Below are positions 13,642 through 49,437 of a DNA stretch of 64,000 nucleotides, piece after piece; within the stretch, counting starts at the first letter, position 1, and the number at the start of each line of letters is the position of its first letter. A model generated the notes under the pieces. It ran no database searches. It saw only the letters and a list, made by a program, of their open reading frames with translations, and was not told the origin of the DNA. Made by a program: the position numbers and the translations under genes. The stretch is taken from assembly GCF_005239135.1 (NCBI RefSeq), contig NZ_QKNX01000001.1, positions 434,001 through 498,000 of the forward strand, in the 5' to 3' direction. The DNA is from Natronomonas salsuginis. GTDB taxonomy: Archaea > Halobacteriota > Halobacteria > Halobacteriales > Haloarculaceae.

Positions 13642-13659
13642 GAGTAGGACCTCCGCGTG

Positions 13660-16998: not shown

Positions 16999-17021
16999 AG
17001 ACTCACAACTATCTGGTAATC

Positions 17022-17029
17022 GTATAAAA
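17022..17029 (-). promoter_or_regulatory. TATA box for mcrB-mcrC operon
   Basis: On the minus strand, ttttatac lies 24-31 bases ahead of the ATG at 16998. This is typical spacing for a leaderless haloarchaeal promoter and decides the start codon. Confidence 0.5.
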
Positions 17030-17152
17030 CCGCCGGAGCACCACATACTGTTAATTCAAGTAAGTATCGACAGTGGTAGTGACATAATACCGACCACTTG
17101 AAATACCTTTGCGAAGCCAAGCTCGACTAATTTCACCTCTGTTTAGTTATAG

Positions 17153-20649: not shown

Positions 20650-21831
20650 CTACTGGCAGGAGTTACAGCCGGAAGATTCGGTTGTAAGCCGAATTGGATT
20701 CATCCCATTCAATTGTTCCCCGCAGTTCTCACAAGCGACCGATCCTGTGACTCCTTCGCCGACAGCATACGGTACACGAATCGACTTGGAGTGGTTTCTT
20801 TGCTGGAGATGAATATCTAATTCCCCACGTTCGTAGGTAACGATAGTCGCCGTAGCGGGAACAGTACTCACTTCTAGCGAATGCCGTCGAAAAATCTGGT
20901 TTCGTTTCTCACGATACCCATTTTGCTTCTCTTCGAGGAGTTGTTCCCGGTCTGATTCAAGGGACTCTTGTTCGGACTGGAGTTCGTTGCGCTGTTGGAG
21001 GAGTTCGACCCGTTTTCGCTGTTCGGTCACGTCGTTGATTTCTCTGGCTAAATCTTGGACCCGATCTGTGAGCGAGGAAATCTCGTCTTGGACGTCGTCA
21101 AGTCGTTGCTCTTGGAGTTGACGGTATTCTTCAAATTCTCTTTCCGCAGCTCGTGTCGCCTCCTCTCGGGTTTGTTGTAGTACCTCCTCCACAGCGTCTA
21201 AAGCGATATCTTGCGCGTCCTTGAGTGGTTTTTCTAATGACTCAATCGAGATTTCCGAACCGCCGTCCTCGGATGTCGGCTCCAGTGGGTCCATGATAAG
21301 GTCAAACATGAGTTCCGACACTGTAGTTGTCAAGTTCGGCAGAACTTCTGAGGAGTTCGTATCGACAGTGACGGCTTCAAGTAAATCCCTCTGATATTCG
21401 CTGACTGTTTCTACTCCGATCTCGACCAGTACAAAGAGCGCCGTTCTGTCATAGTATGGAACGAAGTTCGCTGACTCAACCTGCGCGTCACTTTCCAGTA
21501 TCCAGTCAGGATACAAATAGTCTCCCTCAACCTGTTCGGTGGTGACGGTTATCGTTCCGACGGGAAACTGATCGGCCACCTCAGAAAGAAGTTGCTGTGC
21601 AAATCGGCTATCCGGTGAGAGAGCCCATTCACCCTCACCAGCCTCGGTCTCTTCAACTTCGATCAGCAGGTCGAATTCCTTCTCTTCGAGGAAGTCAAGT
21701 TCTACATGAGAGGGAAGTTGAATATGCCACCTGTGCCCTTCGTCTCGAATCGAGGCACCGATCGTTCGCAAATAGGACTTCGTGAACCCCTTTATAACCC
21801 GCTGTGTCACTGGATGCGATGCATCAGTCAT
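20650..21831 (-). CDS. Coiled-coil protein with C-terminal zinc ribbon
   Basis: 393 residues, overlapping the end of the helicase gene by eight bases, so translated with it. Residues 1-190 form a mixed alpha/beta domain; about 205-320 are a long charged coiled coil rich in Gln, Glu and Arg; the C-terminus has CENCGEQ and CNSCQ, a zinc ribbon. In many SNF2-type proteins such a coiled-coil extension is fused to the helicase; here it is a separate gene. I infer a helicase accessory protein that dimerises and contacts DNA or the other system subunits. No enzymatic motif is seen. Confidence 0.72.
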   Translation of the reverse strand: MTDASHPVTQRVIKGFTKSYLRTIGASIRDEGHRWHIQLPSHVELDFLEEKEFDLLIEVEETEAGEGEWALSPDSRFAQQLLSEVADQFPVGTITVTTEQVEGDYLYPDWILESDAQVESANFVPYYDRTALFVLVEIGVETVSEYQRDLLEAVTVDTNSSEVLPNLTTTVSELMFDLIMDPLEPTSEDGGSEISIESLEKPLKDAQDIALDAVEEVLQQTREEATRAAEREFEEYRQLQEQRLDDVQDEISSLTDRVQDLAREINDVTEQRKRVELLQQRNELQSEQESLESDREQLLEEKQNGYREKRNQIFRRHSLEVSTVPATATIVTYERGELDIHLQQRNHSKSIRVPYAVGEGVTGSVACENCGEQLNGMNPIRLTTESSGCNSCQ

Positions 21832-23623
21832 CGTCTGGCCCTAGGTCAAAACCCTCGAAGACACCACTATTGAAGTTCTGAACCTTCTGTGCCAGTTCCT
21901 TCTGTTCCTCAAGATCAACCGCCATTGCGTCAAAATCGTTCTCCAAATCGACTTCTGAACCCGCGTTCACTAACCGTTCGAAGATTTCATCTTCGAAGCT
22001 CCTGCCGGAATCTTCGAGTCTGCTCAGTATCGTACTTAGTTCTCCCACTGTCTGTTGGAACAAATCGATCTTATGGTAGAGCCTGTCGAGTACGTACTCC
22101 TCGATAGTGTTTTTCAGTCCCATATTGAAGATGTAGACCTCTCGTTTCTGCCCGATGCGATGGATGCGACCGATCCGTTGTTCGACTCGCATCGGATTCC
22201 ACGGCAGATCATAGTTCACCATAATGTTACAGAATTGAAGATTGCGACCTTCGCTCATCGCATCAGTGGATACGAGTACACCGCCCTTCTCTTCGAAGCG
22301 CTCGACGATGTCCTCTTTTTCTTGACTCGAATGACCACCATGGAAGGCGTGAGTCGTGTATCCCTGCTTATCTAATGCCTTGATGACTTCCCGTTGGGTC
22401 GGCCGGAACTGTGTGAAGACGATCACCCGCCCCATGTCCACGTGCACTCGGGCCTCCTCGACGATGTCGAACAGCCGCTCTTGCTTCGTGACGGTATCGA
22501 TGGCCTCGATCTTTTCAAGGATCGTCCGGAGTTCATCGCGGTGCGTCAGCTCGTTGCGCTCCTCCAGCTGCATCCTGATTGTCTGTTCTAGCGCAGCTGG
22601 ACTGCTTACGACCTCCTTCTGAAGAAGCATCAACACCAACTTCTGACCTTGATCTTGGCTGTAAGCCTCACGGACATAGTCTGAGACCGAATTATATAGG
22701 TCCATCTCGGCAGCCGATGGTTCGAACGTCCGCGTGTCGATAATACGGTCGGTGAAGTCGATGTCTGCATCCTCACGCCGGTTGCGGATCATCACCTGCC
22801 CCAACCGATTCTGAAGCTCGTCCCGGTTTACCAGCGTCTTCTGGTTTCGGTTTACGAAGTAGTGGTGGAACGTATCCCGGCTTCCAAACAACCCGGGTCG
22901 GAGGAGAGAAACGATATTGTAGAGGTCAGTGAGTTCGTTCTGAATCGGTGTCGCGGTGAGGAAGAACGCGTAATCGTACGTCAGCTTGTCGATGAGATCG
23001 TAGCGGTCTGTCTCCTCGTTTTTGACGTAGTGAGCCTCGTCGAGCACAAGCACGTCCCACTCCCGGGCGAGAACAGTGTGCCTGAATCTGTCGCTCTTGG
23101 CCGTATCGATGCTGGCAATAATGTAGTCGTGAGCATCGAAACCACCAAACTCGCTATCATAGTTGCAGACGAATTCAAGACCGAACTTCTCCCTCATTTC
23201 GGCCTGCCATTGCTTTGCCAGTTGTGCGGGAGTGAGAATCAATACAGAGTCATTGGTCTCACGGTAGTGCATCTCCTTCAGAATCATGCCAACCTCAATG
23301 GTCTTCCCGAGGCCGACTTCGTCAGCGAGGAGCGCTTTCCCGTCCATCTCGAAGAGTGCTCGATAGGCCGCGTCCACCTGATGTTCGAGGAGCTTGACTT
23401 GCTCCTCGTCAACGTGGGAGAGCGATCGGAGTTCGGTGTCTGGTTGGCCAACTAAGAGCCGATTTGCAACGACCGTCTGCCGGTGGAACGAAAAATCCGA
23501 AACTCCAGAAGAATAGGAATCAACAATGTCCTCTGCGTTGTCGTGCGTGACCTCAATATCGACGAGGTCTTGCTCATCCATATAGTAGAAGAACCCTGTC
23601 GAATGGTATAGAGGTTTTGTCAT
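21824..23623 (-). CDS. SNF2-type DEAD/DEAH helicase
   Basis: 599 residues with all SF2/SNF2 motifs: ADEVGLGKTIEVGMI (Walker A, about 100-114), ILTPAQLAKQW (Ia), LVLDEAHYVKN (II, about 205), FFLTATPIQN (III), VIVFTQFRPTQRE (IV), LVSTDAMSEGRNLQFC (V) and QRIGRIHRIGQKR (VI, about 485). It belongs to the RapA/DrmD-like group of dsDNA translocases. It leads a two-gene operon with the coiled-coil protein and is divergent, across 55 bases, from the McrB-like gene, so the two operons share a promoter region. In context it is the likely DNA-scanning motor of the restriction-modification cluster. Confidence 0.88.
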   Translation of the reverse strand: MTKPLYHSTGFFYYMDEQDLVDIEVTHDNAEDIVDSYSSGVSDFSFHRQTVVANRLLVGQPDTELRSLSHVDEEQVKLLEHQVDAAYRALFEMDGKALLADEVGLGKTIEVGMILKEMHYRETNDSVLILTPAQLAKQWQAEMREKFGLEFVCNYDSEFGGFDAHDYIIASIDTAKSDRFRHTVLAREWDVLVLDEAHYVKNEETDRYDLIDKLTYDYAFFLTATPIQNELTDLYNIVSLLRPGLFGSRDTFHHYFVNRNQKTLVNRDELQNRLGQVMIRNRREDADIDFTDRIIDTRTFEPSAAEMDLYNSVSDYVREAYSQDQGQKLVLMLLQKEVVSSPAALEQTIRMQLEERNELTHRDELRTILEKIEAIDTVTKQERLFDIVEEARVHVDMGRVIVFTQFRPTQREVIKALDKQGYTTHAFHGGHSSQEKEDIVERFEEKGGVLVSTDAMSEGRNLQFCNIMVNYDLPWNPMRVEQRIGRIHRIGQKREVYIFNMGLKNTIEEYVLDRLYHKIDLFQQTVGELSTILSRLEDSGRSFEDEIFERLVNAGSEVDLENDFDAMAVDLEEQKELAQKVQNFNSGVFEGFDLGPDDD

Positions 23624-23678
23624 TCTAACTCTCGTCTTAGGCGGGTTTTTATTAGTAGAGGGTCACATTAATCAGCAA
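23624..23678. promoter_or_regulatory. Shared divergent promoter of helicase and McrB-like operons
   Basis: Only 55 bases separate two divergent start codons. The AT-rich ggtttttattagtag (about 23643-23657) can serve as TATA element in either direction, 20-35 bases from each start. Co-regulation of the two operons is inferred. Confidence 0.45.
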
Positions 23679-24914
23679 ATGAGTAGCGGGAAGCCGCGGT
23701 TTCAAGAGTACGACCGCGATGAAGCGGAAGAATATAGCGGATTCCTCCTGACGAACGCGCCGACTGCAGAGGACTTCATCAAGCAGACAACCGACCCGAA
23801 GGCAATCCGCTATCTAGTTGAAACACATACGATCGACGTCGACGTCCCTGGCGCTGGCACCAAGATAAAGGAAGCTATCCTCACCTCTGAGACAGCACCG
23901 CTCGATGTGAAGCAAACCGTCGCACAACGCAACGTAGACCTGGACGACATTATTGTGCCAGAAACCGTCGAGCGCAATGCCCGAACCGCTCTTGCGGTCG
24001 GCAAGCCAATTGTTTTCTATGGGCCGACAGGAACTGGAAAGACGTATTTTGCCAAACAACTTGCACTGGAAACCTGTATCGACTACGAAGTGCATACCGC
24101 GACGCCGACGTGGACGCCAGCGGATATCACGGGGAGTATTCAGCCTGAGACGGATGACGGAGAGATTACGTACCACCGGCGAGCAGGCTGTGTTTCCCGA
24201 GGAATCCAAGAGGCAGAGCGATACGGCGACAACTACGCTGTCATTATCGACGAGATCACCCGCGCCGACATCTCACAAGTCTTCGGTCCGTTGTACACGG
24301 CTATCGAGGACGATAAACAGGTGATTTTCCGTGATGACGATGGAGACGGACTCACCTTGACCGATGATTTGAAGCTCATTTGCACGATGAATATGTCTGA
24401 CCGGACTGTCAATGAGCTTGACAACGCCATTACCCGTCGGTTCGCAATGATCGAGTTGAGTCGTTACGACGACGATGATCGGGCAGCGTTATTCGATGAC
24501 TGGATTGGAGAATTAGAATCAGGCCCGGACCTAAATATCGATCTCAGAAAATTACATACACTGTTCGAGCGCCATCATCGAGGAATCAATGAGGGGACGA
24601 CGACGAGTGCCGAAGGTGGGATTATGGAGTTCGGTCCGATGCACTATATCGACGTGACAAAGTTCCTGAAGCACGCCTGCAAGCCAAGCGGGCCATACTC
24701 GGGAGAGGCGAGCCTGGCAGTCGGACAAGCATTTGCGACCTATATCGCGCCACGGCTTCTGAACACCGCCTCACTACCACAGATTAACCGGTTGGCAAGC
24801 CACTACGATTCGCTTGACGATCAGTTTTCCTTCGATTTGAGTGCCCCTGCCGATCTTGCTCGTCGGCAAGCCGAAGCAGAGGAGCGTGAGATGGGCGTCA
24901 ACGCTTATGAGTGA
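23679..24914 (+). CDS. McrB/MoxR-like AAA+ ATPase (short form)
   Basis: 411 residues, far shorter than McrB because the DNA-recognition domain is missing. Walker A VFYGPTGTGKTYFAK (about 112-126), Walker B VIIDEITRADISQVFGPLY (about 188-206), sensor ICTMNMSDRTVNELDNA and arginine finger ITRRFAMIEL are all present and are of the McrB/MoxR (AAA_5) type. The stop overlaps the start of the McrC-like gene by eight bases. It should form a ring that powers or loads the McrC-like nuclease, with substrate choice supplied by other subunits, perhaps the divergent helicase. Expressed from the shared divergent promoter. Confidence 0.85.
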   Translation: MSSGKPRFQEYDRDEAEEYSGFLLTNAPTAEDFIKQTTDPKAIRYLVETHTIDVDVPGAGTKIKEAILTSETAPLDVKQTVAQRNVDLDDIIVPETVERNARTALAVGKPIVFYGPTGTGKTYFAKQLALETCIDYEVHTATPTWTPADITGSIQPETDDGEITYHRRAGCVSRGIQEAERYGDNYAVIIDEITRADISQVFGPLYTAIEDDKQVIFRDDDGDGLTLTDDLKLICTMNMSDRTVNELDNAITRRFAMIELSRYDDDDRAALFDDWIGELESGPDLNIDLRKLHTLFERHHRGINEGTTTSAEGGIMEFGPMHYIDVTKFLKHACKPSGPYSGEASLAVGQAFATYIAPRLLNTASLPQINRLASHYDSLDDQFSFDLSAPADLARRQAEAEEREMGVNAYE

Positions 24915-26703
24915 TGCAGTTAGGTACGAGTACGGGACATCCCTGTGCACGGTTCAAGAGGACCAAAAACTAGTCGTTGAGAACTGTGACCCGGCTACGA
25001 TCCGGGAAGAACTCGAAGCGGCGAATTTTCAGCGAAATGATGCCCGATTTGTTAAGCGCCGTGCCAGATTGCGGTCAAATGCATCGGATGATGAGGACGA
25101 TTCACTACAGGTACTCGCGGTCCGGGTGGCGGAGGACACACTCCACGTCGAGCCTTCAGACGTCATTGGTATAGTCGGTCTCGTGCCCGGGATGAGTGTA
25201 CAGATCGAGCCGAAAATTGAGTGGGGCGATGTTGTTCGGATGTTATTGACGGTCTACGATATTGACCGGACACAAACGCCATACGGAATTCCGCTCGAAG
25301 AGCTGACCTCAGGTGGCATTGAAGCGTCCCGCATTATCGCTATCTTGGCTATCAATTATGTCCACGGTGTTCGGACGATCAAACGAAAAGGATTCATCCG
25401 CGATCTCAACATTCAGCGACGAAATGGCTTCGAGGGGATCGGATCTATCGATATGTCACAAACGCTGATGAACCAAGCGACCGGGAAACCGGAACCTGCT
25501 TGGATTGAGTCGCAGGTGGATTACAGCAACGTCGTTAACGAAGCAATTCATATGGCGGGCAAGCTCCTTCTTCGTCTCCTTCACCGGGACTCTGAGGAGG
25601 AGCAGCATCCTGGCCATGGGGCGCTTCTCTCTATGGTTCATCAAGAGGTCGAAAGGATGGAAGACCTTGGAATCGGGAGCAGACAGCAACGGTTAGGCGA
25701 GTACAGGCAACTGACGCTGAATGCCCTTCCTCGGCAACGTCACTATTACCAGCGCGCGCTTCACACGGCACACTCCGTTCTAGCGTCTACGCTACTTGCA
25801 CAGACTGGAAGTGGCCCCGAAGAACTACTTGTTGACTATGCACTAAGCATGAACGCTCTTTTCGAGGATTATTCACAAAAGGTTCTGGAGCGTGGCCTCC
25901 AATCCATTGCAGAGATAGATCACCTCGACCAGCTCACGAACCTCGAAATCGATGCAGAGCCGCCGCTAGAGCCTTTTGAAGGAAACAATCAGGCGAGCTA
26001 TTATCCAGACCACCTGGTCGTCGACAATGATGTGACGCTTGCGGTGCTGGATTCGAAGTATTACCAGGAAGGAAAAAATCCCGCCAATGAAACGAACTCT
26101 CGGTCCCGAATGTTTTCCTATGCCTATCTCACCGAGACCGATCGGATGGCATTTCTTTGCCCACAATTCCACCGGACCACGTTAGTAGTGAATAACATCG
26201 ATGCATCGGTCGATATTCTCTCTCCAAATGGTGGATTTAGTTGTGAATCCTATGAATCCTTACTCCACGAGTATCTCCTTGAGACGATTGAACTACGGTA
26301 TCCTGAAATCGGCGTTTTCAATTCAGTCCGGGAGGGAATGCTCTGTCTCCAAGGCGTCTCAGAGGAAGACCTTGCGGCCATTACAGAGGTTGAGGGCCCC
26401 TTCGGAATTAGTAACCCGTCTACGTTCGCGTCGAAAGTGATTTCGGCGATCTCATTCTCGACCCATGGGCCCGGGAAATTAGAGCTAGAGAACAGCGGGG
26501 GATGGACAAAATCCCGAATTATTGAGAGATGCAACAAGAAGGACGATGAGGATCGTCCAATGTATCCACAAGATCAGACCACCTGTGTTCCGGTCTATAC
26601 ACCCGATGGCGATACCGGCCATGGCACGATCACGTTGAATTTCTTCAGACAAGAAGAGGATGGCTTGATAACTAAACTCGAAGAATCGCTTTCGCTTATA
26701 TAA
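24907..26703 (+). CDS. McrC-like PD-(D/E)XK nuclease (long form)
   Basis: 598 residues from ATG 24907, overlapping the ATPase stop; an upstream frame extension is rejected. It follows the McrC plan: an N-terminal beta domain (IGLVPGMSVQIEPKIEWGDV), helical middle, and nuclease core YYPDHLVVDNDVTLAVLDSKYYQ (about 360-385; D…D-S-K). It is about 170 residues longer than the McrC at 12364, the extra part being C-terminal (from about residue 450) and unassigned. Residues for metal binding look intact. It forms an operon with the short McrB-like ATPase and converges on the 135-residue gene. Confidence 0.78.
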   Translation: MSDAVRYEYGTSLCTVQEDQKLVVENCDPATIREELEAANFQRNDARFVKRRARLRSNASDDEDDSLQVLAVRVAEDTLHVEPSDVIGIVGLVPGMSVQIEPKIEWGDVVRMLLTVYDIDRTQTPYGIPLEELTSGGIEASRIIAILAINYVHGVRTIKRKGFIRDLNIQRRNGFEGIGSIDMSQTLMNQATGKPEPAWIESQVDYSNVVNEAIHMAGKLLLRLLHRDSEEEQHPGHGALLSMVHQEVERMEDLGIGSRQQRLGEYRQLTLNALPRQRHYYQRALHTAHSVLASTLLAQTGSGPEELLVDYALSMNALFEDYSQKVLERGLQSIAEIDHLDQLTNLEIDAEPPLEPFEGNNQASYYPDHLVVDNDVTLAVLDSKYYQEGKNPANETNSRSRMFSYAYLTETDRMAFLCPQFHRTTLVVNNIDASVDILSPNGGFSCESYESLLHEYLLETIELRYPEIGVFNSVREGMLCLQGVSEEDLAAITEVEGPFGISNPSTFASKVISAISFSTHGPGKLELENSGGWTKSRIIERCNKKDDEDRPMYPQDQTTCVPVYTPDGDTGHGTITLNFFRQEEDGLITKLEESLSLI

Positions 26704-26712
26704 TCGGTGTCT

Positions 26713-27120
26713 TCACACTCTGAACGGGGTGACTAGCCACCCGTCACGTCGACGTTTGATCTGTCGCCCAAAGATAGTCTGGAGCGAGTAGGACTCACTG
26801 TCGATCGCTACTTCGAATGTGTCCCCAACACTCTGGAAGTTTCCACCAAGGGTGAACTGTATCGTCGGCAACGGATGCTGGTTGTTGAGATAGTCCATCT
26901 CAGCTCGCATAACTGAAACGAGGCGTTCACGAAGCTCTTCCTCTTCGGCAAGTGCCATCTCTAACCCGACAACACAAACCTCCTTCGGCAAGTCTCGCTC
27001 ATCGAGACTGGATACGAATTCCTCGATGGGAAGCTGGTAGTCCGCAGTTTTCCACTTGCCTCGTTCCATGACGTTGTACATCCCGGCAACTGCATCGATC
27101 TCATTCATGTCTCGGAACAC
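26713..27120 (-). CDS. Small protein at end of methyltransferase operon
   Basis: 135 residues from a GTG 21 bases after the methyltransferase stop, with gaaggtg as ribosome-binding sequence. Helical N-terminal half (PKEVCVVGLEMALAEEEELRE), beta-rich C-terminal half (TIQFTLGGNFQSVGDTFEVAI). I do not recognise the family; by position it resembles small accessory genes (such as DUF3780) that accompany DUF499/DUF1156 operons, but I see no motif to confirm that. Only 9 bases separate it from the end of the convergent McrC-like gene. Confidence 0.65.
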   Translation of the reverse strand: MFRDMNEIDAVAGMYNVMERGKWKTADYQLPIEEFVSSLDERDLPKEVCVVGLEMALAEEEELRERLVSVMRAEMDYLNNQHPLPTIQFTLGGNFQSVGDTFEVAIDSESYSLQTIFGRQIKRRRDGWLVTPFRV

Positions 27121-27141
27121 CTTCGGAACTGTTTCGGATGA

Positions 27142-29766
27142 TTAGTCATGGAGCAGAGATCGGTATCCTTCATCATTAGTAAGCGCTGCAAGGTCGTTTG
27201 TGAGTTCAACCATCTCACTCGTTTCTTCTATTTCCTGTTGCTGACCGGTAATCTCCCCCGTTTGCGCGGCATACCAACGGCGCAACTGAACCCGGTCTAA
27301 AGCTGTTAAATCCGATTCTGTGGTGGATTTTAAATACGCAACACGGTCTTCATCGTTCCAATCCAGTATCTCAAATTCATCCTCGTCCCGGATCAGGCCC
27401 TTCTCTCGAACCTCCTCGGGAGAGACATCGGTGCCATAGCAGAGACGATGGAGGTCAGTTTGAGTCGGATCATCCATCCCAAGCAGAGTGAGATAAATTT
27501 CGTCGGGCGTTACATCCCCGGCCACGAGTCCATGCATCTCAGCAGCAATCTCTGTAGAATCTAACACGCCACCTTCACGATGAACCTTCCCATAGTACTG
27601 TGAATACTCCCTGAAGCAGCGGCCTAGCTCAACAATTCCCATTTCGCCTTCTGAAATAGATTGGTCACTATTTTCGAGCTGGTTGCGGGCTTCAGTCGCG
27701 GAGCGATGGGCTTCACGTCTAAGCGACGACCAACTAATCGGTTCCCGGGAGTCAGCGGGCTTGGCGACGACCACCACGGTGAAGTTGAGTTTATCGTCCC
27801 CGAATAGCTCACTGGCGTTTGCCGAAACCGGGTACATTGCAGCGATGTCGAATCCAGATCCGCAGAGTCCGTCGAGGAGTGCCCCCCACGATTCCGCCCC
27901 ACCATGTTGGTACGTGAATGCCAAGATGCCATCGTCAGACAGCACCTCACGCATTCGAGCGAAAGCCTCCCCGAGTTCCAATTCGAACTGATCGTCATCT
28001 TTCCCGATTGCAGGATTCGACACGATACTCTCCTGGCGTGGAGTCGTCTCTTCTTCAAAGCAGTCGTAATCTTCGGATAGTAGAACACGCTGCCAGACGT
28101 AAAAGAAGTCAGAAACCTCAGAGTAGATGACGTTCTCGTAATACGGTGGATCGGTAATTATCGCATCATACTCTGTATCGAGGTCAACATTGCGCATATC
28201 CCCTTGATGGAGGGTGTAGTCACCACTAACTGACTTCTCGAATGGATTCGTCTCCTCCAGCTCTCCATCCTTCAAGTACCGTTCTGTCGGGTGGTGGGCA
28301 AATTCAACTCCGTTTTTGATCTTTTCCCACGTCGATGTGAAGGTTCCTCGCCCCGCCCGTGTCCCCCATACGTTGTTCTCCGCGTAGGTCCCTCGTGGCG
28401 TGTACGAGTTTCGGCCGAGTATACCCTCGATCTTGCGCCCTGCGCTATTATACCGGCCAAAGCTGTTCTGGAACAATAACGAGTCGCTAAACGCTAACAG
28501 GAGATACTCCTTAATCTGTTGGTCATCTATATCGTCGATTGCCCGGAGCAGCGTTGAAAGGCAGTAGAGCTGGCGGTCGTTGAACATATCCCGCCATTTT
28601 TGAAAGCCGTGCTGGAAAATGTCGTTTCCGCTGATTCGAGATGCAGCTGTTATTGCCCCCTCTGGAATAGGGCCCTCCGGTGCGTATTCTTGGAGACTGT
28701 CGTCAGTCTGCCACTGATCTGAAGCGGATTCATACTGTTCTCTGTCCGCAGTTGACGGTTTCTTGAATCCCTTGTAGACTGCACGATCTTTCCCCTCATC
28801 ATCGCACTCCGTGCAGTAGTACTCGACTGCAAAGAGCTTCTCCGAGTACGACTGACCGTCCGCGATCGCATCGACAATTGGGTATTTCAGTCCACAGGAG
28901 GGACAACCATACTTTCCTCCTTGTGAAACCGGGCCATTCTCTGGAACGAACTCGTAGCTACACTCTGAACAGACTGAGTTCGTCGAAAGATCATCTGTGA
29001 GAGAAATCCCACCGCAATCGGGACAAAGGACATGGTATCCGTCACTGTCTGCGTATCTGCCCTTTGCCACCCGGTAGTCCTTGAACAGTGGGATCGTCTC
29101 GCCACATGAGATGCAGTCGAGAGTCCGAACCCAAAGGGCATAGACGATATCAGCGATGTGCTCGTCATTGTGTGGGCAGTCGGTCTCGTATTGTGTGGCG
29201 AGTTCCGCAGCAACTTCGTCTTCAACGCGCTCGAACGCCGAGTGAAGTGCATCGATCTCAACCTCGTGTGCTTCGAATTCTTTCTTCGTCACAAACCACG
29301 CGACCGGGTTCAGGTCGACTCCCGTAACAGACGCATCGAATCGGGAGGCTTCTAGGAGACTTGTCCCGCCCCCCATGAACGGGTCGAGTACTTCGACGTC
29401 TTCAACCTGCACGTCCCGCTGATAGAGATCCCAAAGTGCCTCGGGATTCTCCAAATCTACCGCCTGAATTAGCTCCCTCAGATCGTACTCGTTCTTGTCA
29501 TCACCGGATGTGTATGCCGAGAGTGATGCGTTGCCGACTGTTTCATCTTGGACGGTCACCCGGTCAGGATCGTCTAGCAGCGTGTAGAGACAAACCGCCC
29601 GGAAGGTACTCCCGAGCTTTCCAGCCCACCACTTGTGCATCGTGGTTAACGGTCGGTAGTAGAGCTTCGCACGCCCTTCACGGGTAGCTAACTCTGTCAC
29701 TTGTTCGATTGGGAATCCACGCTCTATCGGGCGTTCCCTCGGGACATCGGAGTTTGAATCAGACAT
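27142..29766 (-). CDS. DUF1156 DNA methyltransferase, copy 1
   Basis: 874 residues. N-terminal DUF1156 region (ERGFPIEQVTELATREGRAK, then YYRPLTTMHKWW). SAM-binding motif I VLDPFMGGGTSLLEASRF (about 127-144) comes before the catalytic ITDPPYYENVIYSEVSDFFY (about 545), the motif order of alpha-type amino-methyltransferases, giving N6-adenine or N4-cytosine methylation. Between them are at least four CxxC zinc pairs (about 200-330). It is paralogous over its length to the gene at 33123, but where that copy has HKWWARRPG this one has HKWWAGKLG, a change in a block usually conserved. Same operon as the DUF499 ATPase. Confidence 0.87.
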   Translation of the reverse strand: MSDSNSDVPRERPIERGFPIEQVTELATREGRAKLYYRPLTTMHKWWAGKLGSTFRAVCLYTLLDDPDRVTVQDETVGNASLSAYTSGDDKNEYDLRELIQAVDLENPEALWDLYQRDVQVEDVEVLDPFMGGGTSLLEASRFDASVTGVDLNPVAWFVTKKEFEAHEVEIDALHSAFERVEDEVAAELATQYETDCPHNDEHIADIVYALWVRTLDCISCGETIPLFKDYRVAKGRYADSDGYHVLCPDCGGISLTDDLSTNSVCSECSYEFVPENGPVSQGGKYGCPSCGLKYPIVDAIADGQSYSEKLFAVEYYCTECDDEGKDRAVYKGFKKPSTADREQYESASDQWQTDDSLQEYAPEGPIPEGAITAASRISGNDIFQHGFQKWRDMFNDRQLYCLSTLLRAIDDIDDQQIKEYLLLAFSDSLLFQNSFGRYNSAGRKIEGILGRNSYTPRGTYAENNVWGTRAGRGTFTSTWEKIKNGVEFAHHPTERYLKDGELEETNPFEKSVSGDYTLHQGDMRNVDLDTEYDAIITDPPYYENVIYSEVSDFFYVWQRVLLSEDYDCFEEETTPRQESIVSNPAIGKDDDQFELELGEAFARMREVLSDDGILAFTYQHGGAESWGALLDGLCGSGFDIAAMYPVSANASELFGDDKLNFTVVVVAKPADSREPISWSSLRREAHRSATEARNQLENSDQSISEGEMGIVELGRCFREYSQYYGKVHREGGVLDSTEIAAEMHGLVAGDVTPDEIYLTLLGMDDPTQTDLHRLCYGTDVSPEEVREKGLIRDEDEFEILDWNDEDRVAYLKSTTESDLTALDRVQLRRWYAAQTGEITGQQQEIEETSEMVELTNDLAALTNDEGYRSLLHD

Positions 29767-29805
29767 ACCGTCTCATGGCCGTGTACTCGTATTTGAACCT
29801 CAGGC

Positions 29806-32800
29806 TCATTCGAACTCGATCGTGATATCGATGTTAGTCGCACTGCTCGGAATCTTCTCTAACAAGTCAGCGACTGTCTCGTGCGACTGTCCCTCTGTCA
29901 GTTGCAGTTCCGTGTGCCCTATCTCGAAGCTCGCCACGTTCTGGAGCTTCTCGGGGGCTGCGTCGGCATTTTGGGCAGTAAACGACACTGATCCATAGGT
30001 GACAGTACCGGACTCATGTGAACTCTGCCACTTTGAGAGGAGGTCTGACAAACTCTCTCCTTCATAGAGGAACTCCCATTCGTCGGCATCGGGGATCCGG
30101 AAACCAATACCCCGGAACCAGTCAGTCGGATCTTGTGTCCTCGTTGTCTTGAATTCGTACTCGGGATCGTCATCACCGAGATTGTCCAACAGGAAATGCC
30201 GAATCGCAGCTTCAGACTCCTCAGGTGCGCACTCGGCCTGTATATCGCCGACTTCGAACGTGTCCTCCACATCGAGATCCCCAATATAGTCGAGTATTTT
30301 ATCCCCAACTTCGTCAGGCACCATCGGAGCAACTACGACAGACCGTGGGTCTCGATCACCGAGAGAACTCACATAGTCGCCCATCGTTTTGATCCGATAC
30401 CCGTCGCCGAGGAGCGAACTCACAGCTCCCGTAAACGCTGTTTTAGTCTCTTCGGACGGGAGATAGACCTCGACATCGTTCCGGATCGCAGTTAGGACTT
30501 GACCAGTATCGGCTTCGTCGGCATCCTCGATTGCTTCCTGGATACGACTTTGAACCTCACCTGAGCCAATCCTCTTCGCGTTTGAGACATCACGAAGTGT
30601 GGCGTCCGATCGGGCTTTCGTGATTACCTCACTCCCGCTGACAAGGACGTATTGATCCTCGTTGGCAAGTCGTCCGACTGCCCGCATAATGTCGTCATGA
30701 GGGTCGTCACTGTCGACCCACACGTCCGTTCGGTTTAGCACTTCGAGTTCGAACGTTCCCACATCTACTTTCTTCGTGCCGCCACTGAAGTTCCGCTGGA
30801 GTTCCGATTCGATATCGTCGACCGACCACCGGTCAACATTCTCACTGAGCACCAGAACTGAATCTGGATCGAGATTGTCCATTTCGCTCTGGAATCCCGT
30901 CCCATCGTGAGCAAGGACAGGTTTTTCTTCAAGTCCGTCCTCGACTGCGTCGACAACGGCCTGAACACTCCCCGGAATCGGATACGTCGGGTCCATCAGG
31001 AACTTCTCGTAAACGTCATCGATCGTCGTCTCTGACCGACTGTTCAGCCGGTCTTGGACAATACTCCAGACATTCCGTTGAAGATCGAAGGGGTCGGCTT
31101 CGGCTGCCGCAGCTATGTTACTAGCGTTTAGCTCGTCTTCTGCCGCCGTGAAGTTCTCCAGCGACATTTCCGCCGCATCGTCGTACGCACTCAGTAGATT
31201 GTCACCGTCAATGACCTCTCCGTAGGCACTCTCCAGTCTGTCTTCCAGGTCATCTGCATATTCACCTTGGAGCTTCTTGATTTCGGACTGGATTTCGTCA
31301 GACAAACTCGGATCGTCCTGTCGGAGCTTCGCGCCGATAACCTCCTTCGCTTTGCCGAGGAATTTCTCCTGCTGCTTGGTCGTCGAAATCGTCTTCTCAT
31401 TTTTCGGCTGGACGAACACCAGCGTATTCCGCCACTGGCGACCCGCCGGCTGATTTTTGATGATCTCGCCGACCTCGTCCTCGCTCCAGGGGCCATTCTT
31501 CACCACCACCTTGATATTTTGACTGTCCGGGACGCTCTCCAGTTCACCATCGGTATTGAAACCGACAGCATACGCACCCGAGCCAAATACAGACTCCACT
31601 GTATCGCCGATAAGCTGCATCGCATCCTCGTCTTCGACGTCACGGGCAGCGTTCTTCACTAACGACCGGGGATTTTCGTCCTCTCGTATGACGAAGCGCT
31701 CGTCCGAACGCCAGAGGTGGTACACCTCGCCTTGCAGGCGTTCGAGGTCGACGATGATGTCGTTGATGCGATCTCCAACGTGGTACGTTCCGATGATGAT
31801 GTCCGACGTCGTCGCTCCTTCAGCAAGTCCAGGGGTGAGCGAATAGATGAGAACCGTGCTGAGAATCGGACGGCCGAACGAGATATCGGTATTGGACAGT
31901 CGGTCGACGATGTCGTCGTAACACCGGTCGGCACGGGCATGAGCAACATTGATCCGTCCGATTTCGTCGTTGTACTCGACTGCATCAACCTCACCATGGG
32001 TGATGAGATCGGTCTTCTGGTGCTTGTCCACGAGCACCTTCGCAAAGAGGTAGAGCATCCCGCGAGTCGCACCGGATTCTGTCTCGGCAAAGTATCGCGT
32101 TTTGAGCGACTCGATAAGTTCCGGGTGGAACGGGTACGTCTCCTGCATCTCCTCCCGGAGGCCGTCAGGCATATCGACATAGTCCGTCCCGTGATAGGCA
32201 TCGATGTATTTGTCGACGAGCGTCTCAACGGCACGCATATCGATGGAATCGGGTTCGACCAACCGGTGGCGGAGGACGTCCTTGATATCCACCTGGTTGG
32301 ACATGTTCACTTCGACTCGGGTCTGTCGAGAGAGAATGTCGTGGACGGCCGATCCTTCGCGTAGCACCGAGACGATAGCGTAGAGATTCGTGCGAGAGGT
32401 AGTTTCCAAGAGGGCCTGCAGGAACCCTTTGTTGGCGCTCTCACGGCGTCCTTCGAGGGTTCCGAACCAGTCCTCCAGCTCGTCCATGAAGAAGGCGACA
32501 GTTCGATCGCCGACAGCCTCCTCGATCACGTCGATAGTCGGGTAGCCACCCTCTTCGTCGTAGTCTTCCTCAGTAACCTCGTAGTCCAGCGCGTCGAATA
32601 GCGGTTCCCAAAGATACTCGGACTGTTCCTTCTGAAGAGAAACAACGACAGGGAGCGCGTCCCGTGGGAGAGTTCCGTCGAGCCCCTCAACCCGGCCGTC
32701 GGCCCACTCCTCGACGACGTCGGGCGAATTGAAACAGTGGTACATTGCCACCATCTGGTGGGACTTCCCGGTCCCGTACGGACCGTACATCTCGTGGATG

Positions 32801-33036
32801 CGCGTGTTGTCCTCGCCCTGGAGCGTGTCTCGTAATCGCTTGAGAGAGTCCTCTAAGCCGTCGGTCAGCAGTGTACGATTGAAAAACCGGCCAGGATTAG
32901 ATTCCAGTGTATCTTCGTCGCTATCGACGTCGTAGAGGCGAATTTGGCCCTTAATGAGGCCGTCACCTTCCGTGAGTTCCTGACTGAGCGTCAGTATATC
33001 GTCGATCTCAGTATCGAGAGTTCCTTCCGCACTCAT
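29806..33036 (-). CDS. DUF499 P-loop ATPase
   Basis: 1,076 residues. Walker A EMYGPYGTGKSHQMVAMYH (about 82-100) and a Walker B-like VAFFMDELEDWFGTLEGRRE (about 174-193), followed by sensor-like LYAIVSVLRE. The remainder is helical with beta C-terminal parts, typical of DUF499, a defence-island family comparable in size and position with BrxC/PglY of BREX. It is flanked by two DUF1156 methyltransferases in one operon (gaps of 86 and 39 bases). By analogy it is the large motor or signalling ATPase that licenses methylation or attack on foreign DNA; its exact role is not established. Confidence 0.83.
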   Translation of the reverse strand: MSAEGTLDTEIDDILTLSQELTEGDGLIKGQIRLYDVDSDEDTLESNPGRFFNRTLLTDGLEDSLKRLRDTLQGEDNTRIHEMYGPYGTGKSHQMVAMYHCFNSPDVVEEWADGRVEGLDGTLPRDALPVVVSLQKEQSEYLWEPLFDALDYEVTEEDYDEEGGYPTIDVIEEAVGDRTVAFFMDELEDWFGTLEGRRESANKGFLQALLETTSRTNLYAIVSVLREGSAVHDILSRQTRVEVNMSNQVDIKDVLRHRLVEPDSIDMRAVETLVDKYIDAYHGTDYVDMPDGLREEMQETYPFHPELIESLKTRYFAETESGATRGMLYLFAKVLVDKHQKTDLITHGEVDAVEYNDEIGRINVAHARADRCYDDIVDRLSNTDISFGRPILSTVLIYSLTPGLAEGATTSDIIIGTYHVGDRINDIIVDLERLQGEVYHLWRSDERFVIREDENPRSLVKNAARDVEDEDAMQLIGDTVESVFGSGAYAVGFNTDGELESVPDSQNIKVVVKNGPWSEDEVGEIIKNQPAGRQWRNTLVFVQPKNEKTISTTKQQEKFLGKAKEVIGAKLRQDDPSLSDEIQSEIKKLQGEYADDLEDRLESAYGEVIDGDNLLSAYDDAAEMSLENFTAAEDELNASNIAAAAEADPFDLQRNVWSIVQDRLNSRSETTIDDVYEKFLMDPTYPIPGSVQAVVDAVEDGLEEKPVLAHDGTGFQSEMDNLDPDSVLVLSENVDRWSVDDIESELQRNFSGGTKKVDVGTFELEVLNRTDVWVDSDDPHDDIMRAVGRLANEDQYVLVSGSEVITKARSDATLRDVSNAKRIGSGEVQSRIQEAIEDADEADTGQVLTAIRNDVEVYLPSEETKTAFTGAVSSLLGDGYRIKTMGDYVSSLGDRDPRSVVVAPMVPDEVGDKILDYIGDLDVEDTFEVGDIQAECAPEESEAAIRHFLLDNLGDDDPEYEFKTTRTQDPTDWFRGIGFRIPDADEWEFLYEGESLSDLLSKWQSSHESGTVTYGSVSFTAQNADAAPEKLQNVASFEIGHTELQLTEGQSHETVADLLEKIPSSATNIDITIEFE

Positions 33037-33122
33037 GTATGTCCAAAGGGATGGCTGACTGGCTTATGAAAGTGAGCATTATCAACTGATGGGCTCAACT
33101 GCCAGAAGACGCGGGAAGAGGA

Positions 33123-35777
33123 CTAGTCGTCGGAGAACTCCGAAAGCGAGGTGTCGACACCGATCATCTTCAGATAGGTTTCGTCCTGCGTGGCCTCTGC
33201 AAGCCCTTCACATAGCTCTTCGAGATCATCAGTCGACCAGTCCTCAAGGTACTCTTTGGTCGATTTACCTTCCTGGTAGTAGTAGCGAAGGAAATGGGCC
33301 TTGTCCAGGACTGTGAGGGATCCGTTCCCCTCCGCGACTTTGGTCTGAAGGTAGGCTTGACGTTGTTTATCGTTCCAGTCGCCGAGGATAAAGTCGTCGC
33401 CGTCCATACGGAATAGTGCCTTCTCTCGCATCTCTTCTTCGGAGGCTTCACTCCGCCGGAGTAGCTTGTTGAAGTCGTTGTAGCTTGGCGATGGGTTCCG
33501 TTGCAGGGCGAGGAAGAGATCCTGCTCACCGAGCGCGTTGTCCTGGATGATACCGTAGATTTCTTGGACAGCCTCCTTCGCTTTCATGATATCGCCACTT
33601 CGGTGTACTGCGCCATGATGTTTCGAATATTCTGAGAAGCACGCACCCATCTCAACCACGCCGATGTCACCCTCGGTCAGGTCTCGGTTCTCTTCGAGGC
33701 TTTCTTGAATCTCTTCAAGTTGATTTATAATATTTATTTTGAGATTCCGCCAACTGATCGGCGTGCGTTCTTCCGTCGGGCGAGCAACGATGACAATGTC
33801 GAATGACACTGCCTCTCCGCCGATGAATTTGTTCAGGTCGGAGTTGATTGGATACGTCGCTGTTACCTCAAAGTCATTGTTACAGAGCGATTCAAGAAGT
33901 TCGCCCCAAGATTCCTCGTCACTGTGGTGATAAGTGAAAGTGAGCGTGCCGTCTTCTTTGAGAGCCCGGTTGATAACGGCAAGAGCTTCGCCCATTTCAT
34001 GTTCGAAGTCTTCGGCAGTCTTGTCGAGAAATGGATTTGTTACGATTGATTCGGCTCTTGGTGTCTTCTCTTGGTCAAAGCCAGGATGGACATCTTCTAA
34101 AAGAATCTTCTGCCAGACATAGAAGAAGTCGGCGACTTCTGAATAAATGATATTGTCATAGTATGGGGGATCAGTGATAACTGCATCATAGGTATCCTCT
34201 GAAGATATATTCCGCATATCTCCTTGTCGAACCTCTGAATTCAGACCAATAGGTTGAGCGAACTCTGAAGTTTCTATGGTGTCACCATCATCGATATACC
34301 GTTCGGTCGGGGCAGCAGCATATTCCACGGCATTCTTGACTTGATCAAACATCGCTGTGAATGTTCCAGATCCATGCTCAATCCCCCATATATTGTTCTC
34401 TGCAGGATACATTGGTGGATCGAAAGAATTCGTGCGCATTAGATTATCAATATGATTTCTACTTTGATGATATCCTACCATCATTGTATTATACCGTAGC
34501 CCGTCTGTTAAAGCAAGTAACAGGTACTCAGCAGCATTTTGATCATTCAACGAGGACAGCGATTTCAAAATCTTTGATAGACATAGTAGCTGACGTTCAT
34601 TGAGCATATCTGTCCACTGGCTATAGCCATGATCAAACACCGGATTCCGCTCGGACGTCATATGACCTGGCGGGATATCTTCATCCGGAACATAATCGTG
34701 GAGATCAGTCCGGGTGTTCCATTTTCGCTTCGCATCTTCGAAGAGTTGCTTATCAGCGGCTCCAGCTTGCTTGTACCCCTTGTGATCACTCTTCTCCAAG
34801 CCCTGTTGGTCACACTCCTCACAGTAATATTCGACGGCATATAGCCGTAGATTGTACCCACCCTGATCCTGGATCCCATCTGTTATAGATTCTTTTTGGC
34901 CACACTTCGGGCAGTTGTAATATCCGCCTCGGCTTACGTTCCCTTCCTTTGGAACAAAGGAGTTGCCGCATTCCTTACAGTCGCTATCATCTTGCCAGTC
35001 ATCAACGAGAGTTACGGCTCCACAACCTGGACATAGGACGTTATAGCCTGGTTCGTCACTGTATCTCTCCTTCGCCACCCGATAATCCTTGAAAAGCGGA
35101 ACGGTGTGCCCACAAGAGACACAATCAAGCTCCTTGACCCAAAAGTCATACATCACATCCGCTTCGTGATCGCCATTCGGACAGGGAGTCCGGTAGTACT
35201 CCAGGATCTCATCCGCGACGTCGGCCTTTACCTGTTCAAATGCATCTTCCAGATCATCCACACTAGTTTGCCCTGCCTCAAGCTGTTTCTTTGTGACGAA
35301 CCATGCGACCGGATTGAGATCCATACCATGAGTCTCAACACCGAAACGAGAGGCTTCTACAAGCGATGTACCACCGCCCATGAATGGATCAAGGATCTTT
35401 TTATTTTTGATTCGCACATCTTTCGGATAGAAGTCCCACAGAGGCTCCGGATCATCCATATCCACCTCGCTAATTGCATCAATGATGTCTTGCTTACTAA
35501 GGCCATTTTGTCCGAGGGTCTCATTCTCACCGGGTTCATAGACTTCTACTTCTTCAAGACTCGTATCATCATCTAGTAGTGAATATAGAGAGATCGCACG
35601 AAAAAGACAACCCGGGCGACGTGCCCACCACTTATGCATCGTATAGATTGGGCGATAGTACTGTTTGGCACGACTTTCTTTCTCGGCGATTTTATTTATC
35701 TTTTCAATAGGAAATCCACGCTCGATGGGGAGTTCAGGACGTCCCTCCGACTTCTCAGATTGATCCTGCTTAGACAT
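33123..35777 (-). CDS. DUF1156 DNA methyltransferase, copy 2
   Basis: 884 residues, first gene of the operon. DUF1156 start IERGFPIEKINKIAEKES and YYRPIYTMHKWWARRPG (about 18-57), motif I LDPFMGGGTSLVEASRFGVE (about 131-150), zinc pairs (CVSCGHTVP, CPGCGAV, CKECGNS, CPKCGQK, CEECDQQ; about 225-345) and catalytic ITDPPYYDNIIYSEVADFFY (about 550). Same plan as the copy at 27142, with clear but moderate identity, so this is an old duplication. Codon use in the centre (34.1-35.6 kb) is noticeably AT-richer than in copy 1. A TATA box lies 34 bases upstream. Likely the canonical modification enzyme of the cluster. Confidence 0.87.
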   Translation of the reverse strand: MSKQDQSEKSEGRPELPIERGFPIEKINKIAEKESRAKQYYRPIYTMHKWWARRPGCLFRAISLYSLLDDDTSLEEVEVYEPGENETLGQNGLSKQDIIDAISEVDMDDPEPLWDFYPKDVRIKNKKILDPFMGGGTSLVEASRFGVETHGMDLNPVAWFVTKKQLEAGQTSVDDLEDAFEQVKADVADEILEYYRTPCPNGDHEADVMYDFWVKELDCVSCGHTVPLFKDYRVAKERYSDEPGYNVLCPGCGAVTLVDDWQDDSDCKECGNSFVPKEGNVSRGGYYNCPKCGQKESITDGIQDQGGYNLRLYAVEYYCEECDQQGLEKSDHKGYKQAGAADKQLFEDAKRKWNTRTDLHDYVPDEDIPPGHMTSERNPVFDHGYSQWTDMLNERQLLCLSKILKSLSSLNDQNAAEYLLLALTDGLRYNTMMVGYHQSRNHIDNLMRTNSFDPPMYPAENNIWGIEHGSGTFTAMFDQVKNAVEYAAAPTERYIDDGDTIETSEFAQPIGLNSEVRQGDMRNISSEDTYDAVITDPPYYDNIIYSEVADFFYVWQKILLEDVHPGFDQEKTPRAESIVTNPFLDKTAEDFEHEMGEALAVINRALKEDGTLTFTYHHSDEESWGELLESLCNNDFEVTATYPINSDLNKFIGGEAVSFDIVIVARPTEERTPISWRNLKINIINQLEEIQESLEENRDLTEGDIGVVEMGACFSEYSKHHGAVHRSGDIMKAKEAVQEIYGIIQDNALGEQDLFLALQRNPSPSYNDFNKLLRRSEASEEEMREKALFRMDGDDFILGDWNDKQRQAYLQTKVAEGNGSLTVLDKAHFLRYYYQEGKSTKEYLEDWSTDDLEELCEGLAEATQDETYLKMIGVDTSLSEFSDD

Positions 35778-35810
35778 GAGTCAGCCTTACCAGGCATTTC
35801 CGCAGGAACC

Positions 35811-35820
35811 TTATAAAAAT
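35811..35820 (-). promoter_or_regulatory. TATA box for methyltransferase-DUF499 operon
   Basis: On the minus strand atttttataa lies about 34 bases ahead of the ATG at 35777, and no other gene intervenes. Probable promoter of the four-gene operon 35777 to 26713. Confidence 0.5.
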
Positions 35821-35920
35821 ACGTAACTGCTGTCCAAAACTCGGCCGCAGACCATCTACTCGCTTTTGACGATGTGGCCCGGTGCCCCAAGTTTATCTTC
35901 CGTAGTTACCATTTAGACAC

Positions 35921-37204
35921 GTGCCGAAACTGAAACGGCGAAAAGACGGGGGCTACTACCTCCATGCCTCCGGCGACGAAAATCCGATCAACACCTTCCA
36001 GGTCACTGACCGGGGAGCCGAGATCGTCAAAAGTAGCGGCCGGGAACTCGGTGAATTCTTTCCAGACCAGCTATTCTTCCTACTCTACGACCTCGGTCAC
36101 CTCTCGACGAAAAACTCCGGTGAGACCGGTGGCGAGATAATCGGCCAAGACCTACCAAGTGAGGTATACCAAGCTCTCTCTGTAGAAGACCGCGTTCAGG
36201 TGGCGAGAAAAATCGTCCAGACCCACGGAGTCGAGGAACTGTACACCGGTGAAACGGCGAAATGGGTCTGCTCTATCCTTGATCAGTCCACAGCAACCCT
36301 ACAGCCTTTGGTAGAGGATATCGCGGAATCAGCCGGATACAGTTTTGAAACCATCCTGGAGTACAGCAAGCTGGTTCACGACGGCGGGAACTCACTAGAG
36401 ATCGCTCTCTGTGCAGATCTCCAGATCCGATATCTTCGTGAAGTAGCGACGTTCGATGTCGATGATGGCCAAGAACGCGAACGAGAGGTACTCGGGGCTG
36501 ACAACAAGTTCGTCTATCTCAAGACCCCAACCGAGGATACGTTTACCTTCGGCATTCCAGGCGACAAACCGATAGAGATCGCTGATGATCTCTCTGCTGA
36601 ACTTGATAGGGTTTGGAGCCCTGGAATCGGTACCGCCGGTTTTGCTGCGCTAACAACGATGGAGGTGGAGCGACGATACGACGTCGATGACGGTATCGTA
36701 CTTCCAGCGGAGCGCCTCAATGATTTTCCTGTTGCCCTTCCACCTCGATCTGAGGTTACGGAACTTTACGAGTCCCTTCGTTTGCTGAAGGCCACAGTTG
36801 ACCATGTACTCTCCTCGCCGGACGCGAGTGTGGAAGACGGTGATAACTCGGTTTGCGACCGATGGCAAGATGAGCTAGAGAAGCGTCTTACATCGGGTAC
36901 TGACGGAGCAGATTCCCTCGGTGCGCAGCAGAACTCACGCACCGACCACACGGTTCAGACCTACCGCGACTGCTACGGCAACGGAAGTGAGATTACTGAC
37001 TACAAGTATATCGAGTGGTCTCAGCCGAGTGAGTCAGAGCAGCTTCGACTGTTTGGATTCGGGATTTTCGAACACGGAGAGGAAGTCAAGGTCCCGGTTG
37101 CACCGGAGAGCGAGAGGCCGTTACCGGTCTATCCGCAGTCAGAGAGCGAGTTAGAGCAAGCAATCGAGTTGTTAGATGAGTTCCCATCGAAACCTTCTGC
37201 CTGA
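35921..37204 (+). CDS. Unknown 427-aa protein beside the methyltransferase operon
   Basis: 427 residues from a GTG start (MPKLKRRKDGGYYLHASGD…), divergent from the methyltransferase operon across 143 bases. The basic, beta-rich N-terminus is followed by an acidic helical body and a C-terminal beta part (LFGFGIFEHGEEVKVPVAP). No nuclease, helicase or methyltransferase motif is visible and there are no membrane segments. Composition is that of a genuine halophile gene. Its position suggests membership of the defence cluster, perhaps as a specificity or regulatory factor, but that is inference. Confidence 0.68.
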   Translation: MPKLKRRKDGGYYLHASGDENPINTFQVTDRGAEIVKSSGRELGEFFPDQLFFLLYDLGHLSTKNSGETGGEIIGQDLPSEVYQALSVEDRVQVARKIVQTHGVEELYTGETAKWVCSILDQSTATLQPLVEDIAESAGYSFETILEYSKLVHDGGNSLEIALCADLQIRYLREVATFDVDDGQEREREVLGADNKFVYLKTPTEDTFTFGIPGDKPIEIADDLSAELDRVWSPGIGTAGFAALTTMEVERRYDVDDGIVLPAERLNDFPVALPPRSEVTELYESLRLLKATVDHVLSSPDASVEDGDNSVCDRWQDELEKRLTSGTDGADSLGAQQNSRTDHTVQTYRDCYGNGSEITDYKYIEWSQPSESEQLRLFGFGIFEHGEEVKVPVAPESERPLPVYPQSESELEQAIELLDEFPSKPSA

Positions 37205-49393: not shown

Positions 49394-49437
49394 GATTGTA
49401 TGCACAAGCAAAACCACGAGACTGCGTAAGGGTTGAG

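What the first reader, a model, noticed from the sequence alone, without database searches (positions are those of the whole stretch)
20650..37204. Composite helicase, McrBC-like, DUF1156 x2 and DUF499 cluster: candidate undescribed defence system
Seen: an SNF2-type helicase with a separate coiled-coil zinc protein; divergent from it by 55 bases a short McrB-like ATPase overlapping an McrC-like nuclease; then a convergent operon of two DUF1156 methyltransferases around a DUF499 ATPase, plus a 135-residue gene and a 427-residue unknown. Known: DUF499, DUF1156 and a helicase recur together in defence islands and resemble the helicase-methylase-ATPase (Hma) type. Inference: adding an McrBC-like nuclease arm without a long recognition domain would give one system in which methylation marks self, the SNF2 motor scans, and the McrC-like enzyme cuts. 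No PglZ (BREX) or DUF1998/PLD (DISARM) gene is within it.
Basis: partly seen in the sequence, partly recalled or inferred. Interest (0 to 1): 0.82.

Follow-up and report, generated by a model that had tools for sequence, protein, structure and literature searches.

The report
McrBC-armed DUF499 defence system
Salt-loving archaea share a conserved block of seven kinds of gene that probably marks their own DNA by methylation and destroys unmarked invaders; unlike its published relatives it carries an McrBC-type nuclease as the likely cutting part.

Summary
In 391 haloarchaeal genomes, 54 of 58 close DUF499 loci have the short-form McrB/McrC pair within about 16 kb, and 54 of 57 such McrC genes have the DUF499 gene. 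Core genes share one history (DUF499-McrC distances r=0.92). The conserved unit has seven kinds of gene: McrB, McrC, a 135-aa protein, DUF1156 methylase (1-3 copies), DUF499 ATPase, SNF2 motor and coiled-coil/zinc protein. The 427-aa, SMC-like and GmrSD genes are cargo. It belongs to the published DUF499 'BREX-related' (BR) kind (Hma is BR Type 1) and is closest to Type 3. The 135-aa protein is homologous to the small iSTAND-like gene of haloarchaeal Type-3 loci, but PglZ, Type 3's presumed nuclease, is absent from all 28 loci examined; McrBC is there instead. Where the other core proteins of two systems are 94-100% identical, the methylase can differ by 31-36%, most in its putative target domain, which suggests that specificity travels with the methylase. 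Best reading: a fourth BR subtype, so far seen only in Halobacteria, that methylates self and cuts with McrBC. Activity is untested.

The parts
20650..21831 (-). Coiled-coil/zinc protein (393 aa); candidate detached C-terminal half of a RapA/BrxHII-like helicase
   Evidence: Next to SNF2 wherever both were found; 27 homologues aligned, CxxC...C at the C-terminus. AlphaFold pLDDT 84.6: alpha+beta core with two long helices before the last strands. The one wide structural match is RapA 8so8, Z 9.5, 242 aligned, rmsd 7.6: suggestive only
21824..23623 (-). SNF2-family motor without fused nuclease (probable start at base 23581)
   Evidence: Pfam SNF2 3e-34, Helicase_C 5e-24, no nuclease domain; 71-86% identical in most relatives; present in all 27 further loci
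23679..24914 (+). Short McrB-like AAA+ GTPase
   Evidence: AAA_5 7e-15, NCBIfam McrB 9e-16; Walker A, Walker B and MNxxDR invariant in 27 homologues
24841..26703 (+). McrC-like PD-(D/E)XK nuclease with a C-terminal extension (probable start at base 24907)
   Evidence: PF10117 7e-7; PD...LDSK invariant in 28 homologues, aligned with the nuclease motif of the McrC chain in 6ut5, weak E 0.055
26713..27120 (-). 135-aa iSTAND-like protein (P-loop fold without Walker A)
   Evidence: tblastn finds it in 27 of 28 McrBC-type loci; homologous to the 129-132-aa gene of PglZ-bearing DUF499 loci (hhalign 98%; HMM E 2e-10 to 7e-6); pLDDT 89.3; VIA rows listed are P-loop NTPases, Z up to 4.7
27142..29766 (-). 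DUF1156 methylase MT2 (paralogue of the window's clade only)
   Evidence: DUF1156 3e-6; 45% identical to MT1, both catalytic motifs present here, altered in two relatives; MT2 monophyletic
29806..33036 (-). DUF499 AAA+ ATPase
   Evidence: DUF499 1e-12; 54 of 58 homologues co-located with McrC; McrBC-type clade support 0.965
33123..35777 (-). DUF1156 methylase MT1
   Evidence: DUF1156 8e-12; DPFMGGGTS and DPPYYDN motifs, five CxxC
34218..34787 (-). Putative target-recognition region of MT1 (residues 331-520), the most exchanged stretch
   Evidence: 43-56% identical between several systems whose other core proteins are mostly 94-100% identical; boundary inferred from divergence, not structure

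Best explanation
A DUF499-centred, BREX-related restriction-modification-like system: a fourth BR subtype. Shown: a conserved unit of seven gene kinds; shared history; intact active-site motifs; no PglZ; methylase alleles exchanged against an almost unchanged rest. Inferred: the DUF1156 methylase recognises a site and protects host DNA (N6-adenine by family). DUF499, the iSTAND-like protein and the methylase form the recognition complex, with the SNF2 motor and its coiled-coil partner moving on DNA. On unmethylated invader DNA the complex recruits the McrB ring, which has no long recognition domain of its own, and its GTP hydrolysis drives McrC to cut. McrBC, usually a methyl-dependent type IV enzyme, would thus be the nuclease of a system in which methylation protects, in the place that PglZ is thought to hold in BR Type 3.
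For: Co-location of 54/58 DUF499 and 54/57 McrC places. Core gene distances r 0.71-0.97; a genome with two systems (G080) has a matching set in each. The PglZ profile finds none in 28 McrBC-type loci but PglZ is in 14 of 15 sister loci ordered DUF499-PglZ-methylase-small protein, identified by matches to 9nv3 PglZ and PorX. 135-aa homology. Trees. Invariant motifs. Methylase exchange: G238/G281 others 94-99%, methylase 65%; G226/G127 others 96-99%, methylase 64%; the reverse in G023/G127, methylase 92%, McrB 66%.
Against: No experiment shows methylation, cutting or virus resistance. The target-region boundary is inferred. A more distant clade of short McrB/McrC pairs (30-34% identical) stands without DUF499, so such pairs can exist without the rest. 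G228 keeps the other parts but no McrBC in the 40 kb read, so McrBC may be dispensable. The P-loop and RapA structural matches are weak or partial.
Confidence: 0.55

Rival explanations
1. One unit, but McrBC is a second-line type IV arm: the methylase/DUF499/SNF2 part blocks unmodified DNA as BREX does, and McrBC cuts invader DNA carrying foreign modifications that would escape it.
For: McrB keeps the NxxD GTPase signature of canonical McrB. A BREX plasmid is known to pair with a type IV enzyme (PMC8565348, title and abstract), and the BR paper lists type IV GmrSD as an auxiliary effector. G228 lacks McrBC.
Against: McrB lacks a long modification-reading domain. McrBC is almost always present, unlike the varied nucleases around it, and no other nuclease is conserved in the core.
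Confidence: 0.27
2. One unit, but the outcome is not cutting of invader DNA as such: recognition by the methylase complex switches McrBC into a self-damaging, abortive nuclease, or the complex mainly blocks replication and McrBC clears stalled DNA.
For: A small inactive P-loop (iSTAND-like) protein of the kind proposed to be a sensor is conserved, and the coiled-coil protein evolves fast, as a sensor might.
Against: Protective methylases and their exchange fit site-directed restriction better than a general alarm. Nothing here tests it directly.
Confidence: 0.12
3. Separate systems placed side by side in a defence island.
For: The island holds several unrelated defence-like genes, and cargo is inserted between core genes in many loci. 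Distant McrBC pairs stand alone.
Against: 54/58 and 54/57 reciprocal co-location in 391 genomes, correlated distances, and matching sets in genomes with two systems.
Confidence: 0.04

Closest known systems
BR Type 3 (DUF499 + DUF1156 methylase + PglZ + iSTAND + nuclease-less helicase; PMC12839542)
   Same: Closest DUF499 and methylase relatives; homologous small iSTAND-like protein; helicase without fused nuclease; methylase with several CxxC zinc-binding motifs
   Different: No PglZ; McrB/McrC instead; C-terminal helicase part probably a separate gene; second methylase in the window's clade
Hma / BR Type 1 (helicase-methylase-ATPase)
   Same: DUF499 (HmaC), DUF1156 methylase (HmaB) and SNF2 helicase (HmaA) homologues
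   Different: No PD-(D/E)XK domain on the helicase; extra McrB, McrC, iSTAND-like and coiled-coil genes; NCBIfam antiphage models far below cut-off (56 of 1200 and 126-141 of 1000 bits)
BR Type 2 (PLD/HKD helicase, DUF3780)
   Same: DUF499, methylase, SNF2
   Different: No PLD domain on the helicase; haloarchaeal Type 2-like loci have a PLD-SNF2 protein and a DUF7680 gene and lie far away in the trees
Canonical McrBC type IV restriction
   Same: GTPase with NxxD motif plus PD-(D/E)XK McrC in one operon
   Different: McrB has no long recognition domain; locked to a methylase/DUF499 system. McrBC branches associated with DNA methylases and DISARM-like genes were announced but not described in PMC11090510
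BREX and DISARM
   Same: Related helicase, methylase and ATPase families
   Different: No PglZ, ATPase matches DUF499 only; no DUF1998 or PLD gene among the core genes

Membership tests
DUF499-centred BR systems (class) | DUF499 ATPase, DUF1156 methylase and SNF2 helicase in one locus | tested here: met
BR Type 3 | Active PglZ encoded in the core locus | tested here: not met
   PglZ profile from sister loci finds none at E up to 10 in 28 McrBC-type loci
BR Type 3 | iSTAND component | tested here: met
   135-aa protein homologous to the small gene of PglZ-bearing loci, P-loop-like fold without Walker A; the iSTAND name follows PMC12839542's layout, since no iSTAND profile was available
BR Type 3 | Helicase without nuclease fusion | tested here: met
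BR Type 1 / Hma | Helicase fused to a C-terminal PD-(D/E)XK nuclease | tested here: not met
   599-aa SNF2 protein with no nuclease match
BR Type 2 | HKD/PLD helicase and stand-alone DUF3780 gene | tested here: not met
   No PLD or DUF3780 match in any core gene
BREX | PglZ and BrxC (DUF6079) | tested here: not met
   No PglZ; ATPase matches DUF499 and not DUF6079
DISARM | DUF1998 protein and PLD protein with the helicase | tested here: not met
   No such match in the core genes
McrBC type IV enzyme | McrB GTPase with NxxD motif and McrC PD-(D/E)XK nuclease | tested here: met
McrBC type IV enzyme | N-terminal modified-DNA recognition domain on McrB | tested here: not met
   Only 85-95 residues precede the AAA domain, with no domain match there; a small unknown reader cannot be excluded
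McrBC type IV enzyme | Cuts only modified DNA | not testable with these tools
   Needs biochemistry

The most novel reading that the evidence does not exclude
McrBC has been turned from a methyl-dependent enzyme into the GTP-driven nuclease of a methyl-protected system. Specificity for both marking and cutting would lie in exchangeable methylase alleles, so that one machine is re-aimed by swapping a single gene.
Probability: 0.42. Interest if true: 0.78.

Novelty: new variant of a known kind. Interest (0 to 1): 0.63.

Why it matters
It adds a further nuclease solution to the DUF499/BREX-related class, in which PglZ is replaced by McrBC. PglZ has been proposed as the cutting part of BREX-like systems, and a natural PglZ-for-McrBC exchange would support that view. 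If the model holds, this is an McrBC working where methylation protects, with methylase alleles exchanged between nearly identical systems, which makes the question of where specificity resides directly testable in cultured haloarchaea.

Tried and rejected
Sequence search of solved structures with the coiled-coil and 135-aa profiles gave only coiled-coil noise or nothing convincing. Foldseek alone gave no match at E 0.001 for either model; BrxB/BrxF did not appear among the listed chains, which excludes nothing. The coiled-coil profile gave no hit at E 1e-4 in the fused helicases of Type 2-like loci, so the split-helicase idea rests on fold alone. The 427-aa gene was rejected as a part: one full-length relative at 40%, otherwise mainly its last 150 residues inside large proteins elsewhere. 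No relative of McrC in phage records. Outside Halobacteria none was found in a phylum sample or in the genome collection; the latter scan used two short peptide patterns and could miss distant forms. A first guess at the tRNA repeat sequence matched nothing. Literature searches found no McrBC-bearing DUF499 system; most subscription papers and preprints are not in the library, and supplementary tables could not be read.

Full report
Observation. The ORFs are at the stated places, and profile searches confirm the families. The 135-aa, 427-aa and coiled-coil genes have no curated match. The cluster sits in an island rich in other defence-like genes: full-length McrBC, SMC/LmuB-like, AddAB-like, CARF-PIN-like, GmrSD and an IetA-like ATPase.

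Is it one unit? The window's DUF499 and McrC proteins were searched in 391 Halobacteria genomes. Of 58 DUF499 places at 42-100% identity, 54 have a core-clade McrC within about 16 kb (median 6.8 kb). Of 57 McrC places, 54 have the DUF499 gene, and one exception (G363) is a contig break. By genome the table is 52 both, 3 DUF499 only, 2 McrC only, 334 neither; Fisher p 2e-58, not corrected for relatedness. Neighbourhoods of 28 McrBC-type loci share McrB, McrC, the 135-aa protein (27 of 28), at least one DUF1156 methylase, DUF499, SNF2 and the coiled-coil protein, with varying cargo inserted between them. In three of the 28, SNF2 and the coiled-coil gene were not among the ORFs read: one contig end (G345), one SNF2 about 22 kb from McrC (G359) and one SNF2 frame broken by a stop (G135). 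SNF2 was near DUF499 in all 27 further loci checked. Protein distances of core genes correlate (DUF499-McrC r=0.92; all pairs 0.71-0.97). Genome G080 carries two systems of different clades, each with its own matching set, which argues against species history alone. Exceptions: G337 and G142 keep DUF499 with little else, G228 lacks McrBC, G289 and G172 have McrBC without DUF499, and a distant McrBC clade (30-34%) stands without DUF499.

What the unknown parts are. The 135-aa protein folds confidently (pLDDT 89). The structural matches listed by VIA are P-loop NTPases at low Z (up to 4.7), and it has no Walker A motif. Its profile hits the 129-132-aa gene of other haloarchaeal DUF499 loci (hhalign 98%). 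Those loci read DUF499, PglZ, methylase, small protein (PglZ in 14 of 15), which matches the published BR Type 3 content with PglZ and iSTAND. PglZ identity rests on matches to 9nv3 PglZ and PorX and the conserved SDHG and HGG residues. PglZ is absent from the 28 McrBC-type loci. The coiled-coil protein also folds well (pLDDT 84.6), and the only broad match is RapA. That is compatible with a helicase split in two genes but is suggestive only.

Relationship. DUF499 of the McrBC type is monophyletic (30 tips, support 0.965). Its methylases are monophyletic (43 tips, 0.955) and branch next to Type-3 methylases, which are paraphyletic in that tree; both genes are far from the Type 2-like loci. Those carry a PLD-SNF2 helicase and a DUF7680 gene. 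So haloarchaea hold DUF499 systems with three different nuclease solutions: PLD, PglZ and McrBC.

Methylase exchange. In G238/G281 the other core proteins are 94-99% identical but the methylase is 65%. In G226/G127 the figures are 96-99% and 64%, and in G134/G109 96-100% and 69%. Residues 331-520 fall to 43-48% in these pairs. In G023/G127 the methylase is 92% identical while McrB is 66%. Methylase alleles therefore move between systems. If McrBC or DUF499 had an independent sequence specificity, such swaps should be harmful, so the simplest inference is that target choice follows the methylase, as it follows the specificity subunit in type I and the Mod subunit in type III restriction (general knowledge). 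MT2 is a paralogue confined to the window's clade among the loci read; its catalytic motif is altered in two relatives (DLPF in G314, THPP in G345), hinting at a structural or specificity role there.

Mechanism. Shown: one unit, intact active sites, no PglZ, exchangeable methylase. Inferred: methylation protects self; DUF499 with the iSTAND-like protein and methylase recognises unmethylated sites; the SNF2 pair moves on DNA; McrB, lacking a long reader of its own, is recruited and drives McrC to cut. The main rival keeps the unit but makes McrBC a second-line type IV enzyme against modified invader DNA.

Distribution and literature. All relatives found are Halobacteria; 11 are on plasmid records and none in phage records. 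The annotated copy in Natronorubrum bangense carries only generic names. The 2026 BR paper defines Types 1-3 and its main text does not contain McrB or McrC. The CoCoNuT paper notes methylase-associated and DISARM-associated McrB branches for later work. Two archaeal restriction surveys do not mention McrB or McrC.

Verdict. New variant of a known kind. The unit, its relatives and the missing PglZ are shown; the mechanism is inferred.

Noticed in passing
window 48374-49522; second repeat at G000:C1:415025 (L208:1501): Integrase beside tRNA-Leu; a copy of the tRNA 3' part (21 bases exact, about 54 of 56 alike) lies 68.4 kb away, so the whole island looks like an element integrated at tRNA-Leu.
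   Followed up: partly
L081:5176-11997 (G000:C2): The same genome also carries a PglZ-bearing DUF499 (BR Type 3-like) system.
   Followed up: partly
L130:8600-16700 (G337:C17): A distant McrB/McrC pair beside an SNF2 (52%), a 676-aa coiled-coil protein with a cysteine-rich tail and a 218-aa Mrr-like protein, without DUF499: possibly another system.
   Followed up: no
window 27142-29766; relatives in L075 and L078: The MT2 paralogue has an altered catalytic motif in two relatives, so a second methylase may have become structural.
   Followed up: partly
L065:7877-9736 and equivalents: A roughly 619-aa ATPase with DUF4143 recurs between McrB and SNF2 in several loci of the window's clade but is absent in the window.
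   Followed up: no
window 40425-42186: An IetA-like AAA gene with a 193-aa partner; the same pair lies next to McrB in L084 and L089.
   Followed up: no
window 35921-37204: The last 150 residues of the 427-aa protein match parts of very large haloarchaeal proteins (open frames up to about 3300 codons).
   Followed up: no
window 12364-17046: A full-length McrBC with a 1128-aa McrB sits in the same island as the short McrBC.
   Followed up: no
window 20650-21831: In several locus pairs the coiled-coil protein is only 52-60% identical while its neighbours are 81-96%, as for a fast-evolving sensor.
   Followed up: partly
window 39303-40220: The 305-aa gene of unknown function recurs (70-76%) at the edge of several related loci.
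   Followed up: no
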